From Streptomyces sp. WM6378 (GTDB taxonomy: Bacteria; Actinomycetota; Actinomycetes; Streptomycetales; Streptomycetaceae): 12,575 nt of DNA. The notes under the pieces were generated by a model. The model was not told the DNA's origin. It searched no databases and saw only the letters and a list, made by a program, of their open reading frames with translations. The stretch lies in NCBI RefSeq assembly GCF_001279695.1, contig NZ_LGDD01000044.1, forward strand, positions 1-12,575, written 5' to 3'. The position numbers and the translations under genes were made by a program. Positions 1 through 8,847 of this stretch are shown here, piece by piece; the first letter of the stretch is position 1, and each line of letters starts with the position of its first letter.

Positions 1-119
1 GGGGGAAAAATGGGGGGCGGGGGCTTCCCCCCACCCCCCCGGGGGGGGCCGCGGGGCGCGCCCGAAAATTTTTGGGGGGGGGGGGGGAGGGCCCCCCGCC
101 CCGCCCCAGCCCCGGCCCC
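1..119. other. Homopolymer-rich window edge, possible contig end
   Basis: No gene is seen here. The stretch is built of long G and C runs, including a run of 14 G at 74-87, C-runs at 26-40 and 92-97, and an A4T5 block at 65-73. Such sequence is unlike the rest of the window and typical of poorly resolved contig ends in high-GC assemblies. If real, it would be the region downstream of the ABC permease gene and could form hairpins or G-quadruplexes. The frames open across it give only repetitive Gly/Pro/Arg peptides and are not taken as genes. Confidence 0.6.
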
Positions 120-899
120 CTACCCGCTCAGTCTCCGGAACCGCCCCACCGCCAGTGGCAGAAACAACCCCACCAGCACCACCGGCCATCCCACGGCCAA
201 CACCCCCGCATGTTCGGCCGCCCAGGACGAACCCCCCGCCCCCGCGCCGCACAGCTCCCGCACCGCCGTAGCCGTCGCGGACAGCGGGTTCCATTCCACG
301 ACCGCCCCCAACCACCCCGGCATCGACGCCGGCGCGGCGAACGCGTTGGACAGGAAGCCGACCGGCCACACCAGGATCTGCACCGCCTGCACCAGCTCCG
401 GCCGCCCCGCCACCATCGCCAGGTGAATCCCGACCCACAGCATCGCGAAGCGGAGGAGGAGCAGGAGACCCAGCGCCGCGAGGAAGCCCGCACCCCCGTC
501 CGGCCGCCACCCGATCGCGTACCCCACGCCGATCATCACGACCAGCCCCGCCGCCGACTGCAGCATGTCCGCCACCGCCCGCCCGACCAACACCGTCCCC
601 GACACCATCGGCATCGAGCGGAACCGGTCGACCACCCCCTTGTTGAGGTCCTGCGTCACCGCCAGCATCGTGCCTTCGAGCCCGAACGCCATGGTCAGCG
701 CCAGCATCCCCGGCACCAGGAAGTCGACGTACGGGCCGGACACGCCCCGCCCGCCGCCCACCAGGTAGCCGAACACAAGGAGCAGCATCACGGGGAAGAC
801 AAGACCGACCACCACCTGCACCGGCTGCCGCGCCCAGTGCGCGAGCTCGCGCCGCGTCATGGTCCAGGAGTCCGCGACCACCCAGCCGACCGCACTCAC
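120..899 (-). CDS. DrrB-like ABC-2 type transporter permease
   Basis: This is the membrane subunit of a drug- or natural-product-type ABC exporter, working with the ATPase encoded just upstream. The 259-residue product has a short cytoplasmic N-terminus with the ABC-2 entry motif [12 protein letters not shown] (15-26). About six hydrophobic segments follow (around 28-48, 60-80, 105-130, 138-160, 172-190 and 234-252). DrrB hallmarks are [13 protein letters not shown] (86-98) in the cytoplasmic loop and [16 protein letters not shown] (202-217) before the last segment. The chosen start is GTG at 899, whose codon overlaps the ATPase stop (GTGA, 4-base overlap), indicating translational coupling. 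An ATG at 860 would leave out the first 13 residues and is the alternative. The substrate cannot be told from sequence; daunorubicin-type resistance exporters are the family prototype. Confidence 0.93.
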
Positions 900-4858: not shown

Positions 4859-5800
4859 TCAGCTGAGTTGAAGGAGTCCGCGCAGAAGATCGCGGCTTTC
4901 CTCCGGGCCCGGGCTGTCCTGCTGGAGCCGGGCCATCGCCCGTTCGTACTGCGCGACCTCCTCCGCCTTGTCCAAATACAGTGCGGAGGTGAGCTGTTCG
5001 AGATACACGATGTCCGACAGGTCCGACTCGGGGAACCGCAGCATCGTGAAGGCACCGCTCTCCCCCGCGTGCCCGCCGAAGCTGAACGGCATTATCTGAA
5101 GGTTGATGTTGGGCTGCTCCGACATCTCGATGAGGTGCTTCAACTGCCCCCGCATCACGTCCCGTTCGCCGTACGGGCGGCGCAGCGCGGCCTCGTCGAG
5201 GACCGCGTGGAACTGCGGGGCCCGCTCCGACACCAGGGCCTTCTGCCGCTCAAGACGCAGCGCGACGCGCTTGTCGATCTCGGCGGCGGGCGCTCCGTGC
5301 ATGCCCCGCGAGACCACCGCGTGGGCGTACGCCTCGGTCTGCAACAGGCCGTGCACGAACTGGACTTCGTAGATGCGGATCAGTGAGGCCGCGCCCTCCA
5401 GGCCGATGTATGTCTGGAACCAGCCGGGCAGCACATCGCCGAAACTGTGCCACCAGCCCGCGATGTTGGCCTCCTTGGCGAGCCCGAGCAGCGACTGGCG
5501 CTCCGCCTCGTCGCCGACGCCGTAGAGCGTGAGCAGGTCCTCGACATCCCTGGCCTTGAAGCTCACCCGCCCCAACTCCATACGACTGATCTTGGACTCG
5601 GACGCCCGGATCGAATAGCCGGCTGCTTCCCGCGTGATGCCGCGCGACTCGCGCAGGCGCCTCAGCTGAGAGCCCAGCAGAATGCGCCGGACCACCGAAC
5701 CTCCGCCGGCCTCGACTGCACTCGGCCGGGGGGATCCCCATGCCTCCCCTGCGGTCACTTCGCCGTCCTCCCCATCCAATGGTGGTGGGCAGTCTGCCAT
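4859..5800 (-). CDS. XRE-family regulator with DUF5753 (WhiJ/Scr1-like)
   Basis: This is a DNA-binding protein of the large actinobacterial XRE-DUF5753 family (WhiJ, Scr1, AbaA-locus type). Its members act with DUF397 and HATPase partners in development and antibiotic control. Numbered from ATG 5800 (313 residues), an XRE helix-turn-helix spans about 39-95 (RRILLGSQLRRLRESRGITREAAGY, SESKISRMELGR). DUF5753 fills about 113-305, with WFQTYIGLEGAASLIRIYEVQFVHGLLQTEAYA as the clearest block. The start is doubtful. The first 35 codons end in A or T in 13 cases, with CCA, GCA and GGA codons unlike the rest. A GTG at 5695 preceded by GGAGGT would give 278 residues, a more usual length. It is divergent from the HATPase gene across a 260-base gap holding a tandem repeat and the TGCA element. 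Confidence 0.92.
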   Translation of the reverse strand: MADCPPPLDGEDGEVTAGEAWGSPRPSAVEAGGGSVVRRILLGSQLRRLRESRGITREAAGYSIRASESKISRMELGRVSFKARDVEDLLTLYGVGDEAERQSLLGLAKEANIAGWWHSFGDVLPGWFQTYIGLEGAASLIRIYEVQFVHGLLQTEAYAHAVVSRGMHGAPAAEIDKRVALRLERQKALVSERAPQFHAVLDEAALRRPYGERDVMRGQLKHLIEMSEQPNINLQIMPFSFGGHAGESGAFTMLRFPESDLSDIVYLEQLTSALYLDKAEEVAQYERAMARLQQDSPGPEESRDLLRGLLQLS

Positions 5801-5862
5801 CAAAACGCTTCACCCCGTACCCGCGTGATTACGGAAATGGTCAAGGAGTGAAATCGGCCTGA

Positions 5863-5882
5863 GGAACTTCTGGGAACTTCTG
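5863..5882. repeat. Perfect tandem 10-bp repeat upstream of XRE gene
   Basis: GGAACTTCTG is repeated twice without a gap, a period of one DNA helical turn. Flanking bases (CTGA before, AGGAA after) partly continue the pattern. It lies 63-82 bases upstream of the XRE ATG, in the divergent gap with the HATPase gene. The spacing would put two binding units on the same face of the helix, so an operator or activator site is plausible but unproven. Confidence 0.6.
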
Positions 5883-5926
5883 AGGAAGAAATGAGCAAGA
5901 AACGGCACGGTCGGGGACAGGTCGGT

Positions 5927-5952
5927 CGCGTGCACGTGCATCTGCCCTTGCA
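5927..5952 (+). promoter_or_regulatory. TGCA-triplet element upstream of HATPase gene
   Basis: The element starts CGCG, continues as the perfect palindrome TGCACGTGCA (5931-5940) and has a third TGCA at 5949-5952. TGCA units thus begin at 5931, 5937 and 5949. The same 26-bp block, 24 of 26 identical, occurs on the opposite strand at 6969-6994 upstream of the DUF397 gene. In both cases the third TGCA is followed by 18 bases and then a -10-like hexamer (AACCAT here at 5971-5976, poor). It probably binds a shared regulator, most simply the adjacent XRE protein. Confidence 0.7.
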
Positions 5953-6060
5953 TCGGGCCGAAGCATTCGGAACCATGGTCCCCGCGCACCTGCGTGCTCA
6001 ACTGCGTCTAGTCGCTTGCGTCCTGTACCGCCACGGCCGCGAACCACGGGAGTGCCTCGC

Positions 6061-6561
6061 ATGGGGACGAATGGATCGACCATGCTGGAGCCTTTTGAGC
6101 CCTTGAGGCAGGCGCTTCCCCCCATCGACCCCTCGACCGTGGCGGGTTCCGCATCCTGTGCGCTGCCCGCCCGTTACGAAGCGGTGCGCGGGGCACGGAA
6201 GTTCACCGGGTCCACCCTCACGCAGTGGGGCCTCGGCGAGCGCTTCGACGATGTCGCCCTGGTCGTCTCGGAACTCGTCACCAACGCGCTGCGGCACGCC
6301 CTGCCCGCCGACACCCCGCGCGAGACCGAGGTGCCGGTACGGCTCCATCTCATGCGCTGGACAAGCCGGTTGGTGTGCGCGGTGCGCGACCCCAGCAACG
6401 AGAGCCCGGTCGAGCGCGAGAGCGACGACTTCGGCGCGGAGTCGGGCCGCGGCCTGTTCCTGGTCGAGTCCTTCGCGGACAGCTGGGGCTGGCACCCGCT
6501 GTCGGGCGCGATCAGCGGCAAGGTCGTATGGGCACTGTTCCGGCTGGCGCCGGCGGAGTGA
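6061..6561 (+). CDS. HATPase-domain protein (RsbW/anti-sigma-like)
   Basis: The 166-residue product is a small GHKL-type ATP-binding protein of the group found next to XRE-DUF5753 and DUF397 genes in Streptomyces. Relatives of RsbW bind sigma or anti-anti-sigma factors, but the partner of this one is unknown. The domain starts at about residue 37. The N-box is ELVTNALRHA (71-80) with the Mg-binding Asn75, the G1 position is DPSNESP (110-116) with Asp110, and the G2 glycine loop is SGRGLFLVESFADSWG (128-143). ATG 6061 is chosen for its GGGAG ribosome site 8 bases upstream; a TTG at 6016 would add 15 unconvincing residues. It is transcribed away from the XRE gene and toward DUF397, sharing with the latter a 26-bp upstream element. 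Confidence 0.92.
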   Translation: MGTNGSTMLEPFEPLRQALPPIDPSTVAGSASCALPARYEAVRGARKFTGSTLTQWGLGERFDDVALVVSELVTNALRHALPADTPRETEVPVRLHLMRWTSRLVCAVRDPSNESPVERESDDFGAESGRGLFLVESFADSWGWHPLSGAISGKVVWALFRLAPAE

Positions 6562-6629
6562 GCTGACACATTTCAGAGTTGGCCGGCTGCCAGCCGTCGT
6601 CCGTCATCTGCCATCTGTCGGCCGTCGGC

Positions 6630-6648
6630 CGGCAGCCGTGCGCTGCCG
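6630..6648. terminator. Bidirectional hairpin between HATPase and DUF397 genes
   Basis: CGGCAGC and GCTGCCG form a perfect 7-bp stem around a 5-base loop (CGTGC). The hairpin lies 5 bases beyond the DUF397 stop and 69 bases beyond the HATPase stop, in the gap where these convergent genes meet. There is no T-tract, as is common for Streptomyces terminators. The surrounding 6582-6640 stretch is rich in repeated GCCGTC/GGCCGG units that allow alternative pairings, for example GGCTGCC at 6586 with GGCAGCC at 6631. Confidence 0.5.
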
Positions 6649-6652
6649 CCTG

Positions 6653-6892
6653 TCAGTCGGCTATCAGATGGTCGAACTCGCCGTCCTTGATGCCGAGCAG
6701 CATCGCCTCTATCTCCGCCCTGGTGTAGACCAGAGCGGGCCCGTCCGGGTGGCGTGAGTTGCGTACCGCCACCCCTCCGCCGGGCAGTTTGGCGAATTCG
6801 ACGCAGGATCCCTGCGAGTTGCTGTGCCGGCTCTTCTGCCACGCGGCACCCTGAAGCTCCGCTGCCGCCATGCCGTTGTACGCGTGGTGCAA
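6653..6892 (-). CDS. DUF397 small protein (Scr2-like partner of XRE)
   Basis: The 79-residue product belongs to DUF397, small proteins almost always encoded beside XRE-DUF5753 genes in actinomycetes; the pair has been described as toxin-antitoxin-like (Scr1/Scr2) or as developmental regulators (WhiJ locus). Diagnostic blocks are WQKSRHSNSQGSCVEFAKL (18-36), VAVRNSRHPDGPALVYTRAE (41-60) and the tail DGEFDHL. The start chosen is TTG at 6892, because GGGAG stands 5 bases before it and the resulting MHHAYNGMAA... resembles homologues as I remember them. An ATG at 6871 is the alternative but lacks a ribosome site. It converges with the HATPase gene, and its promoter region carries the shared TGCA element and a clear -10. 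Confidence 0.9.
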   Translation of the reverse strand: MHHAYNGMAAAELQGAAWQKSRHSNSQGSCVEFAKLPGGGVAVRNSRHPDGPALVYTRAEIEAMLLGIKDGEFDHLIAD

Positions 6893-6944
6893 GGTCGCTC
6901 CCGGGATGTGCGGACGTGCAACTGTGAATGGTCAACTGCCCCGG

Positions 6945-6950
6945 ATCATA
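6945..6950 (-). promoter_or_regulatory. Predicted -10 of the DUF397 promoter
   Basis: TATGAT on the minus strand (6950-6945) differs from TATAAT at one position and would give a transcript start near 6938, about 46 bases before the TTG start. No good -35 hexamer is found at 17-18 bases; that position (about 6968-6973) is occupied by the third TGCA of the conserved element. This suggests an activator-dependent promoter or a repressor that directly covers the -35 region. Confidence 0.5.
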
Positions 6951-6968
6951 GCTGTGTTCATGTGCGCC

Positions 6969-6994
6969 TGCATGGGAAGATGCACGTGCACGCG
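6969..6994 (-). promoter_or_regulatory. TGCA-triplet element upstream of DUF397 gene
   Basis: This is the second copy of the 26-bp element, reading on the minus strand CGCG, TGCACGTGCA, then TCTTCCCA and TGCA. Plus-strand TGCA units begin at 6969, 6981 and 6987, so the 12/6 spacing mirrors the 6/12 spacing upstream of the HATPase gene. The only two differences lie in the linker between the palindrome and the third TGCA. Orientation relative to the downstream gene and distance to the -10 position (18 bases) are the same in both copies. Confidence 0.7.
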
Positions 6995-7111
6995 GGGTGC
7001 CCGGGCGGTTACAGCCGTCACGGGTCGCATCCCCGCACCGGAAGAAGAGACGCGTCCCTGGCCCGCAAGGTTCAAACACCCGCACGACCGCGCCCGCGTC
7101 CGCATACGGGA

Positions 7112-7174: not shown

Positions 7175-7414
7175 CTATGTCCGGGCGGTCGAGGAGTACG
7201 GCAGCAGGGCCATCTCGCGGGCGTTCTTGATCGCTCGGGCCAGCGCGCGCTGCTGCTGGGCCGAGACCCGGGTGACCCGGCGGCTGCGGATCTTGCCGCG
7301 GTCGGAGATGAACTTCCGCAGCAGGTCGGTGTCCTTGTAGTCGATGTACGTGATGCCGTCGCGGTCCAGCGGGTTCGGCCGGGGCTTCGTAGCGGTGCGG
7401 GGTCGCTTGGGCAC
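7175..7414 (-). CDS. rpsR2: 30S ribosomal protein bS18, zinc-free paralogue
   Basis: The 79-residue product is bS18, which binds the platform of the small subunit next to bS6. The family blocks [20 protein letters not shown] and [13 protein letters not shown] are present. No cysteine occurs, whereas the housekeeping actinobacterial S18 has a CxxC zinc site near its N-terminus (PLRKPKKKVCAFC type), so this is the 'C-minus' form made during zinc shortage. The start is GTG at 7414 with GGAGG 8 bases upstream, inside the end of the preceding gene. Only 3 bases separate it from the stop of the CobW-like gene. It is the last gene of the operon and is followed by a strong hairpin. Confidence 0.96.
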
Positions 7415-7417
7415 GGG

Positions 7418-8563
7418 TCAGACCTCCAGGAAGGCGTCGAAGGCGGGCGGCAGGAGCTTCCAGGAGTCGCGGCCCGCGGCGTACTCGGCGTCGGTGAGCA
7501 GGCAGGAGTCGAGCAGCGCGGACAGGCCGTCGCGGTCGAGGCCCGGCGAGGTGAAGACCAGGTGCTGGCAGCAGTCGCCGTGCTCGGGGTGCCAGTCGAG
7601 GGCGGCCGCCGCTCTGCGTACCGGCGGGACCATCTCCCAGGCCGCGTCGGGAAGGGCGACGAGCCAGGGGCCCGCGCTCTCCACACAGAGCGCGCCGCCC
7701 GCGGCGTCCCAGGCGAGCAGCGTGTCGGGCCGGTCGGCGAGCCAGAACCGCCCCCGGCTGCGGGCGGCCGCACAGCACAGGTCCTCCAACGCCTCGTACA
7801 GGCGCCCGGGGTGGAAGGGGCGGGTGCGGTGCCAGACGTACGTGCCGACGCCGGCGTCGTCCGCGTCCTGCGGCAGCAGCGCGCACGCCGGATGCTGGCG
7901 GGCGGCAGCCGCCTCCACGTCGAATCCGGCGAGGGAGGCTTCCGCCAACTCACCTGATTCGTAAGGGATGTGACGGGCCGTCGGATGCAGCTGGGCCAGC
8001 AGCGCGCGGTCCTCGTCGTCGGCCTCCCCCTCATCCACGATCGCGAGGACCGGGGCGTACTCCAGTTGGCGGGCCCAGGTGTCGGCGACCGTGCGCCGGT
8101 CGGAGGCCGCCGCGGCGAGCCCGACGTCGGCGAGGTCGTCGCCGTTGCCCAGGCAGGGCAGCAGGAGGGCGGGGTCGACGGCGGTGATGACGGAGGTGAT
8201 GGTCAGCACCCCACTCTGGGCGTCGATGACTTCGGCCATGGCCTTCGGCTCGACCGAGTCCCACAGTTCGACGATCGCGAGCCGGGTGGAGCCGCCGTCC
8301 GCGAGGCGCACGAGTTCGGGGACCAGGTCTTCGCGCAGGGCGCAGCACGCACAGTCGTTGACCAGCGGGGCCTCGCCCTCGTCCCGTACGCCCAGGGTGT
8401 CGCGGACCGTGCGGCGGACCGTTCCCTTCGCGGCGGCGCCCGCCAGGTCGTGGTGGAGGGCGATGCTGCCGGGGACGGCGCGCAGCAGCCGCTCCACCAC
8501 GGCCCGGCGGGCGTCGGCGTGCAGCCCGCCGACGATCGCGACGGGCAGTTTCTGACCGGTCAT
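7418..8563 (-). CDS. CobW/COG0523-like protein, Mrf-like, degenerate P-loop
   Basis: The 381-residue product belongs to the CobW/G3E superfamily (COG0523), usually GTP-dependent metal chaperones. It keeps the metal-binding CxCC motif at [16 protein letters not shown] (C71, C73, C74). The N-terminal strand [13 protein letters not shown] (8-20) lacks the Walker A GxxxxGK[ST]. The region [13 protein letters not shown] (95-107) replaces the usual ESSGxxxP, and [11 protein letters not shown] has no NKxD. GTP binding is therefore doubtful. From memory, the equivalent operon of mycobacteria encodes Mrf, a CxCC protein that recruits a hibernation factor to ribosomes in low zinc; this is the likeliest role here (inference). 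The C-terminal half contains the CobW C-terminal domain ([18 protein letters not shown]). ATG 8563 overlaps the rpmE2 stop (ATGA), indicating coupled translation. Confidence 0.92.
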
Positions 8564-8847
8564 GCGGCGCCGGACCGCCGCTCGGAGCCGCCCTGGCGCC
8601 CGGATCCGTACCGGCGCTCGAAGCGCTCGACTCGGCCCGCCGTGTCCATCACGCGCGCGTTGCCCGTGTAGAAGGGATGGCTCCGGTCGGAGATCTCGAC
8701 GTCGACGACGGGGTAGACGTTGCCGTCCTCCCACTCGATGCGCTTCGCCGTGCTCGACGCCAGCGTGGAGCGGGTCAGGAAGGCGTGCCCGGCCGCCTTG
8801 TCGCGGAAGACGACGGGTCCGTACTCGGGGTGGATCGAAGGCTTCAT
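8560..8847 (-). CDS. rpmE2: 50S ribosomal protein bL31 type B (zinc-free)
   Basis: The 95-residue product is bL31B, a bridge protein between the subunits. The N-terminus [16 protein letters not shown], the block [32 protein letters not shown] and the arginine-rich tail are diagnostic. It has no cysteine, unlike the type A form that carries a CxxC zinc site, and is expected to replace type A in low zinc and free its zinc. The start ATG 8847 follows the L33 stop by 6 bases, with GAGAGGAG about 12 bases upstream. The stop overlaps the next start by 4 bases. Confidence 0.96.

What the first reader, a model, noticed from the sequence alone, without database searches (positions are those of the whole stretch)
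5927..6994. Matched TGCA-triplet element in front of both small partners of an XRE/HATPase/DUF397 module
A 26-bp block at 5927-5952 recurs inverted at 6969-6994 with 24 of 26 bases identical. In each, three TGCA units are spaced 6 and 12 bases, and the last is followed by 18 bases and then the -10 position of the downstream gene. The HATPase gene (plus) and DUF397 gene (minus) are convergent, so the inversion keeps the same orientation relative to each gene. This is strong evidence of co-regulation. The XRE-DUF5753 protein next door is the obvious candidate binder. WhiJ/Scr1-type modules are known, but I do not know of a described operator of this form; novelty is an inference.
Basis: partly seen in the sequence, partly recalled or inferred. 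Interest (0 to 1): 0.78.

Follow-up and report, generated by a model that had tools for sequence, protein, structure and literature searches.

The report
Conserved twin operator of WhiJ-like regulator
Two matching DNA switches in front of two small partner genes of a Streptomyces development-type regulator are kept almost unchanged across the genus and beyond, and the regulator next door is very probably the protein that reads them.

Summary
In detail: a 26-bp block (24/26) recurs inverted at 5927-5952 and 6969-6994. Its core TGCACGTGCA-N8-TGCA occurs only twice in the 9.49-Mb genome and in 293 of 295 Streptomyces genomes, 232 with exactly one copy per strand. The core belongs to a 6-bp-phased TGCNNN array overlapping the -35 region of the HATPase and DUF397 promoters. 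In 25 of 80 loci the DUF397 array is 12 bp longer, yet its last TGCA stays exactly 18 bp from TATGAT. Outside Streptomyces, 40 of 55 cores in genomes with a relative of this XRE lie within 2 kb of one (0.11 expected; 0 of 32 positioned reversed-control sites), all on the opposite strand. The HTH is largely kept in 20 box-bearing XREs, altered in ten 45-47% homologues without a box, mixed in ten others. So this is very probably the cognate operator of a WhiJ-subfamily regulator. Binding was not tested; activation versus repression is unresolved. WhiJ9 (PMC10294661) makes the kind known; this sequence, geometry and breadth were not found in print (searches listed).

The parts
4859..5803 (-). XRE (HTH_31) - DUF5753 regulator, WhiJ-like; proposed binder
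   Evidence: Pfam DUF5753 6.7e-59, HTH_31 5.8e-16; NCBIfam equivalog NF058600 'Sco1979 family', 385 bits, cut-off 350
5927..5952 (+). operator copy in front of the HATPase gene (core 5931-5952)
5948..5953 (+). TTGCAT, probable -35 of the HATPase promoter, embedded in the last unit of the operator
   Evidence: TTGCAT in 80 of 80 Streptomyces loci; role inferred
5971..5976 (+). AACCAT, weak candidate -10 of the HATPase promoter
   Evidence: AACCAT 65, AAGCAT 8, AACGAT 7 of 80; role inferred
5985..5996 (+). second in-phase element CGCACCTGCGTG, 54 bp from the core start, about +3 to +14 of the inferred transcription start
   Evidence: CGCACCTGCGTN in 71 of 80 Streptomyces loci; TGCA at exactly +54 in 15 of 18 loci outside Streptomyces; place in window
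6061..6561 (+). HATPase_c_2 protein (AbaA / anti-sigma-like partner)
   Evidence: Pfam HATPase_c_2 3.2e-14 on the ORF 6016-6561; start from conserved ATG context
6653..6892 (-). DUF397 protein (BldB-like partner), TTG start
   Evidence: Pfam DUF397 1.6e-19
6945..6950 (-). TATGAT, -10 of the DUF397 promoter
   Evidence: TATGAT in 80 of 80 Streptomyces loci; role inferred
6955..6990 (-). hexamer-phased array in front of DUF397, from about -52 to about -17
6969..6994 (-). operator copy in front of DUF397 (core 6969-6990)

Best explanation
The two blocks are the cognate operators of the XRE-DUF5753 regulator encoded next door. Several XRE subunits bind side by side on a 6-bp-phased TGCNNN array that overlaps the -35 region, and so set the promoters of both partner genes (HATPase and DUF397) together. 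In the own genome the exact sites are confined to this module, so it looks like a self-contained switch. By analogy with WhiJ9/BldB I infer that DUF397 antagonises the XRE protein, so that producing DUF397 closes a feedback loop, negative if the XRE activates. Supported by comparative sequence data: site, spacing, linkage, HTH association. Inferred: binding, stoichiometry, transcription starts, sign. My lean on sign is activation (about 0.5) over repression (about 0.4). The confidence given is for 'operator of this XRE acting on both promoters', not for the sign.
For: Two exact cores in the own genome, both here. 293 of 295 Streptomyces genomes carry an exact core: 232 one per strand, 48 one in all, 13 three, 2 none (my tally of the table); 551 cores in all against 46 matches of the reversed control. 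The two genomes without, and four of the 48 with one, do have the XRE and keep cores with one or two mismatches; G292 has a core with one extra base before the HATPase gene (printed). Linkage: outside Streptomyces 40 of 55 cores in the 40 XRE-bearing genomes lie within 2 kb of an XRE hit, 0.11 expected from genome sizes, and 0 of the 32 reversed-control sites with listed positions do; all 40 are on the opposite strand. Of 20 such sites fetched (of the 40), 12 point at a HATPase (6) or DUF397 (6) gene and 7 more stand 55-157 nt upstream of DUF397 in the other orientation (coordinates). HTH segment largely kept in box-bearing XREs, altered in ten 45-47% homologues. Spacing lock: last in-phase TGCA exactly 18 bp from TATGAT in 46 loci with the basic array and in 25 with 12 more bp, 71 of 80 in all; 18 bp to CATGAT also in L278-L281 (printed). 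Precedent: WhiJ9 binds direct repeats and is required for activation of the adjacent gene iosA in a bldB mutant (PMC10294661, abstract, passages and sections 10 and 14 seen).
Against: No binding or expression data for this module. The 80 Streptomyces loci, and many of the 40 linked sites (several from one genus), are near relatives, so counts are not independent events. The number of cores in the 40 XRE-bearing genomes (55) is no higher than the reversed control (50); only their positions are informative. Of ten 53-61% XREs chosen for having no exact core, L299 (15/17) and L297, L298, L305 (14/17) have degraded ones, L302 one with an extra base (13/17), L301 equals the shuffle maximum, and L296, L300, L303, L304 show nothing above shuffles. 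Against activation: the second site at the HATPase start; arrays reaching 6 bp from the -10 in other genera (L249, L250) and abutting it in f18 (L238-L242). In 8 of the 20 fetched sites (L266, L268, L278-L281, L284, L285) the box points at neither a HATPase nor a DUF397 gene that tblastn recognised, and L284 has neither gene in the stretch.
Confidence: 0.85

Rival explanations
1. Same operator and same binder, but the XRE represses both genes; DUF397 or a signal relieves it, giving positive feedback.
For: The array overlaps the -35 position of both promoters; the HATPase promoter has a second in-phase element just downstream of the inferred start; in other genera arrays run into the spacer or up to the -10. 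Loss of WhiJ9 raised whiJ9 transcription 2-fold, consistent with autorepression (PMC10294661, section 14).
Against: Core centred at -41.5 if the -10 is at -12 to -7 and constant 18-bp spacing are typical of activators that touch RNA polymerase; no sigma-70 promoter passes the consensus scan of 5700-7100; WhiJ9 is required for activation of iosA.
Confidence: 0.4
2. The box is bound by another, more global regulator and merely sits beside the XRE.
For: Binding has not been measured; sigma-E sites are reported at SCO3423 and SCO3424 (PMC10771440, PMC6767563, one passage each), so other inputs exist.
Against: A global regulator would have other sites; exact cores are confined to this module in the own genome, and elsewhere they track this XRE subfamily, three per genome in four f17 genomes.
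Confidence: 0.08
3. Recent duplication, repeat element or chance.
For: A 26-bp inverted pair is unusual enough to suggest duplication.
Against: None in 200 shuffles; reversed control 46 matches in 41 of 295 Streptomyces genomes against 551 true matches; both copies are exact in 79 of 80 loci and differ from each other in a consistent way, the HATPase copy ending CCCTTGCA or close to it and the DUF397 copy mostly CATGCA.
Confidence: 0.02

Closest known systems
WhiJ9 - iosA - BldB9 locus of Streptomyces venezuelae (PMC10294661)
   Same: WhiJ-family XRE protein next to a DUF397 gene and a divergent partner gene; operator made of direct repeats in the intergenic region; binding measured by SPR there.
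   Different: Three repeats with consensus CGXXCTCAAC, 113 bp upstream of the iosA start; here TGCNNN hexamer arrays over the -35 of two promoters. One CGNNCTCAAC match occurs in the window (5993-6002), 0.46 expected.
SCO3421-SCO3423-SCO3424 of S. coelicolor
   Same: By recalled gene order (aldehyde dehydrogenase, XRE, HATPase, DUF397, S18, CobW, L31) this window is the orthologous locus; [quoted passage not shown]
   Different: No operator is described there in the passages seen; the window's own HATPase gene lacks TTA, while 77 of 80 relatives have it. NCBIfam labels the XRE 'Sco1979 family', so the SCO3421 assignment rests on recalled synteny; S. coelicolor itself was not among the loci fetched by name.
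WhiJ / SCO4542 / SCO4544 and Scr1/Scr2 (SCO4441/SCO4442)
   Same: Same three protein kinds or two of them; regulators of development or antibiotics (PMC6262351, PMC10364602, passages). Cpb1 of S. lividans, 99% identical to Scr1, is reported to bind the chiA promoter (PMC6262351, passage).
   Different: Other paralogues, in which the DUF397 gene follows the XRE gene; no operator sequence was given in the passages seen.

Membership tests
WhiJ-type XRE / DUF397 / AbaA-HATPase module | XRE-type HTH with C-terminal DUF5753 | tested here: met
WhiJ-type XRE / DUF397 / AbaA-HATPase module | small DUF397 protein nearby | tested here: met
   79 aa, separated from XRE by the HATPase gene
WhiJ-type XRE / DUF397 / AbaA-HATPase module | HATPase_c (AbaA-like) protein adjacent | tested here: met
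WhiJ-type XRE / DUF397 / AbaA-HATPase module | XRE binds repeats near partner genes | not testable with these tools
   repeats found; binding not measured
WhiJ9-type operator (three CGXXCTCAAC repeats) | three copies of the repeat near the XRE gene | tested here: not met
   1 match in the window, 0.46 expected
Type II toxin-antitoxin pair | two genes in one operon | tested here: not met
   DUF397 lies beyond the HATPase gene, same strand as XRE but upstream of it, with its own conserved -10 (promoter inferred)
Type II toxin-antitoxin pair | toxicity of one partner | not tested
   no experiment; overexpressed paralogue Scr2 was not deleterious (PMC6262351, passages)
SCO3421 orthologue group | synteny with S18-CobW-L31 on one side and aldehyde dehydrogenase on the other | tested here: met
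   window genes; L255 keeps all of them; that SCO3421 has this context is recalled

The most novel reading that the evidence does not exclude
A whole WhiJ subfamily, found with its box in five actinomycete families (f1, f17, f18, f19, f37), reads one ancient DNA code: 6-bp-phased TGCNNN arrays that lengthen by 12-bp units upstream of a fixed contact at -35. Because several paralogous modules in one genome carry the same core (three each in G377, G444, G493 and G511), they could form a cross-regulating network in which DUF397 partners tune array occupancy.
Probability: 0.35. Interest if true: 0.75.

Novelty: new variant of a known kind. Interest (0 to 1): 0.62.

Why it matters
WhiJ/DUF397/AbaA modules are among the most multiplied regulatory families of Streptomyces, yet in the papers seen here only WhiJ9 has a mapped operator (and Cpb1, a Scr1 orthologue, a named target promoter). 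This gives a defined binding site, two defined target promoters and a defined subfamily HTH for what is, if the SCO3421 assignment holds, the most widely conserved member. What WhiJ-like proteins bind, and how DUF397 and BldB act on them, becomes testable with short oligonucleotides. It also suggests why DUF397 and the HATPase gene are kept together: they share one switch.

Tried and rejected
Upstream short ORF: an ATG 40 nt before the HATPase core heads an open frame in many loci, but a start codon is absent there in 25 of 80, conservation differs little by codon position (1.58, 1.47, 1.49 bits), and the box-to-gene distance varies from 92 to 137 nt without keeping frame; rejected. The long conserved block after the HATPase box is better explained by the second in-phase element.

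Matched boxes as a general property of all such modules: 13 other DUF5753 modules of the own genome were compared (of 26 other DUF5753 hits; 20 regions fetched). Best scores were 18 of 24 (L203, L213, L218), reached in 1 to 5 of 60 shuffles over 34 comparisons, against 22 of 24 and 0 of 60 for the window. Gene starts there were approximate and only four modules allowed a HATPase-DUF397 comparison. No sign that it is general.

Anti-phage defence: no PADLOC match for the three proteins. Solved structure of a relative: none for XRE; one weak hit (E 0.023, an ABC transporter protein) for DUF397. Consensus promoter and terminator scan of 5700-7100 found nothing. An XRE promoter in the conserved stretch upstream of XRE could not be assigned.

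Sigma-E promoter upstream of DUF397: the window has a match starting at 7074 (-), and 8 of 80 loci have one in the 200 nt before the box (1.65 expected by shuffling); five of the eight are the window's closest relatives L030-L034. Not part of the core mechanism.

Literature searches: DUF397+Streptomyces+operator; SCO3421/3423/3424; WhiJ/DUF397/BldB; WhiJ+direct repeats since 2023; the string TGCACGTGCA and two longer forms; DUF5753; AbaA-like+WhiJ+anti-sigma+operator. None gave this operator; none of the 21 papers holding the string has a title about Streptomyces (titles and abstract starts seen). Papers seen: PMC10294661 abstract, passages, sections 10 and 14; PMC6262351, PMC10364602, PMC4255298 passages; PMC6767563, PMC10771440, PMC4848846 one passage each; the rest as listings. 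Subscription papers, including the original whiJ paper, are not in the library.

Limits: the XRE list scored at most 11 candidates per genome at E 1e-70 or better; the loci were picked by me (20 of 40 linked sites; 20 XREs without an exact core nearby).

Its list was cut, so 32 of 50 control sites in the XRE-bearing genomes have positions.

Full report
Observation. The inverted pair 5927-5952 / 6969-6994 is real (24 of 26). Its exact core TGCACGTGCA-N8-TGCA occurs twice in the window, never in 200 shuffles, and nowhere else in the 9.49-Mb assembly. With two mismatches allowed, the genome shows no excess over the reversed control (61 and 71 against 100 and 108).

Genes. Minus strand 4859-5803: HTH_31 plus DUF5753. 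Plus strand: HATPase_c_2 ORF 6016-6561. Minus strand 6653-6892: DUF397. Beyond it on the minus strand lie S18, a CobW protein and L31; on the other side an aldehyde dehydrogenase. Conserved context puts the HATPase start at ATG 6061 and the DUF397 start at TTG 6892. By recalled gene order this is the SCO3421-SCO3427 region of S. coelicolor. NCBIfam gives the XRE the label Sco1979 family, so the SCO3421 name rests on recalled synteny.

Conservation in Streptomyces. The exact core is in 293 of 295 genomes. From the printed table, 232 have one copy on each strand, 48 have one copy in all, 13 three and 2 none: 551 cores, against 46 matches of the reversed control in 41 genomes (my reading of the table; sums). 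I checked the two without and four of the 48 with one: all six have the XRE. The cores that are not exact there have one or two mismatches, and G292 has a core with one extra base before the HATPase gene (sequence printed). In 80 named Streptomyces loci, the best 80 of 308 found, both exact cores are present in 79; L104 has one mismatch at DUF397. The two copies differ consistently: CCCTTGCA in nearly all HATPase copies, mostly CATGCA at DUF397.

Anatomy. The core is part of an array of hexamers TGCNNN (TGCACG TGCATC TGCCCT TGCATC). At DUF397 the -10 is TATGAT in 80 of 80 loci. It lies 18 bp after the core in 51 loci, 19 in 3, 30 in 25 and 32 in 1. In the 25 loci with 30 the last in-phase TGCA is again exactly 18 bp from TATGAT, as in 46 of the 51 with 18; the other 9 loci deviate. 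So the promoter-proximal end is locked and the array differs in length by 12 bp upstream. With a -10 at -12 to -7 the 22-bp core spans -52 to -31, centre -41.5. At the HATPase gene the last unit forms TTGCAT (80 of 80), 17 bp from AACCAT (65), AAGCAT (8) or AACGAT (7).

Second element. In Streptomyces the HATPase promoter keeps CGCACCTGCGTN 54 bp from the core start in 71 of 80 loci; the other nine have variants. In the 18 loci outside Streptomyces with a HATPase hit, anchored on the best match to the HATPase-type core, a true TGCA stands at exactly +54 in 15 and within one base in 17. This places a second contact just after the inferred start of transcription and explains the long conserved block downstream of the first box.

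Linkage to this XRE. Among 197 genomes of the class, 16 are Streptomyces. In the other 181 the pattern TGCACGTGCA-N8-TGCW gave 115 sites: 55 in the 40 genomes with an XRE hit (E at most 1e-70) and 60 in the rest. Of the 55, 40 lie within 2 kb of an XRE hit, where 0.11 would be expected from genome sizes. All 40 are on the strand opposite to the XRE gene. The reversed pattern has 50 matches in the same 40 genomes, so the number of cores alone means nothing; but of the 32 control matches whose positions were listed none is within 2 kb of an XRE hit. The linked XREs are only 51-65% identical to the query and include three per genome in G377, G444, G493 and G511. The other 15, and the 60 in genomes without the XRE, look like background. 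Many of these genomes are close relatives, so 40 is not a count of independent events.

Rearranged modules. I fetched 20 of the 40 linked sites. In six the DUF397 gene is convergent with XRE and the box stands directly before DUF397 and points at it (L267, L269-L273). In six it points at the HATPase gene (L274-L277, L282, L283); in two of these, L275 and L283, as in L243 and L244, DUF397 directly follows XRE and there is one box. In seven more (L266, L268, L278-L281, L285) the box stands 55-157 nt upstream of DUF397 but points the other way, with CATGAT 18 bp on in L278-L281 and no recognised gene there. L284 has neither partner gene in the stretch (all). In L252 the XRE has another position and orientation, yet cores remain beside DUF397 and the HATPase gene. 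In f18 (L238-L242) no HATPase hit was found; a core ending in TGCT or TGCC stands on the DUF397 strand, about 190 to 450 nt before the DUF397 match, and runs directly into TATCGT or TACTGT.

HTH association. The segment around RASESKISRMELGR is nearly constant in the orthologues of Streptomyces, other Streptomycetaceae and f18 that were aligned, and very different in the own-genome paralogues. Twenty box-bearing XREs at 50-61% identity keep it largely, with box scores of 15-17 of 17 against shuffle maxima of 12-14. Ten homologues at 45-47% have altered helices (ENGR, ETGQ or EQGR in place of ELGR) and best scores of 11-13, at most one above five shuffles. Ten at 53-61% without an exact core are mixed: four have degraded cores (14 or 15 of 17), L302 scores 13 and holds a core with one extra base, L301 equals its shuffle maximum, four have nothing above shuffles. 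The last five count against a perfect rule.

Mechanism. The best-supported reading is that the XRE binds the array cooperatively and sets both partner promoters. [quoted passage not shown] For repression: overlap with -35, the second element at the HATPase start, and arrays reaching the -10 in other lineages. I lean slightly to activation, with DUF397 as antagonist closing a negative feedback loop. Only experiments can decide.

Known versus new. Modules of this kind, and one mapped operator of another member, are published; WhiJ9's operator is three copies of CGXXCTCAAC, a sequence not enriched here. [quoted passage not shown] The searches listed under Tried and rejected found no account of the TGCA operator. 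Hence: new variant of a known kind, unusually well conserved and directly testable.

Noticed in passing
window 6061-6561: The window's HATPase gene has no TTA codon, while 77 of 80 relatives have one at codon 12-15; PMC4255298 reports TTA in 12 of 14 SCO3423 orthologues. The window's species may have lost that bldA-type layer.
   Followed up: partly
window 7074 (-): Sigma-E-like TGAACC...CGTCT upstream of the DUF397 box; sigma-E binding at SCO3423 and SCO3424 is reported in PMC10771440 and PMC6767563 (one passage each). Found in 8 of 80 relatives only.
   Followed up: partly
window 7175-8847: S18, CobW-type and L31 genes in a row on the minus strand, resembling the zinc-regulated alternative ribosomal protein cluster (recalled).
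   Followed up: no
G377, G444, G493, G511 (family f17): Three XRE modules per genome carry the same operator core, suggesting cross-regulation between paralogues.
   Followed up: partly
L266 3183-3392 and 3765-3974: Two DUF397 genes follow one XRE gene.
   Followed up: no
G302:C31 and G316:C6: Tandem XRE copies (65-70% identity to the query) with several TGCA arrays near them (L190, L194).
   Followed up: no
window 1-120: Start of the contig is unusually rich in runs of G and C, perhaps poor sequence at the contig end.
   Followed up: no
L278-L281 (families f19, f37): Box 18 bp from CATGAT upstream of a DUF397-XRE pair, pointing away to a gene that was not identified.
   Followed up: no
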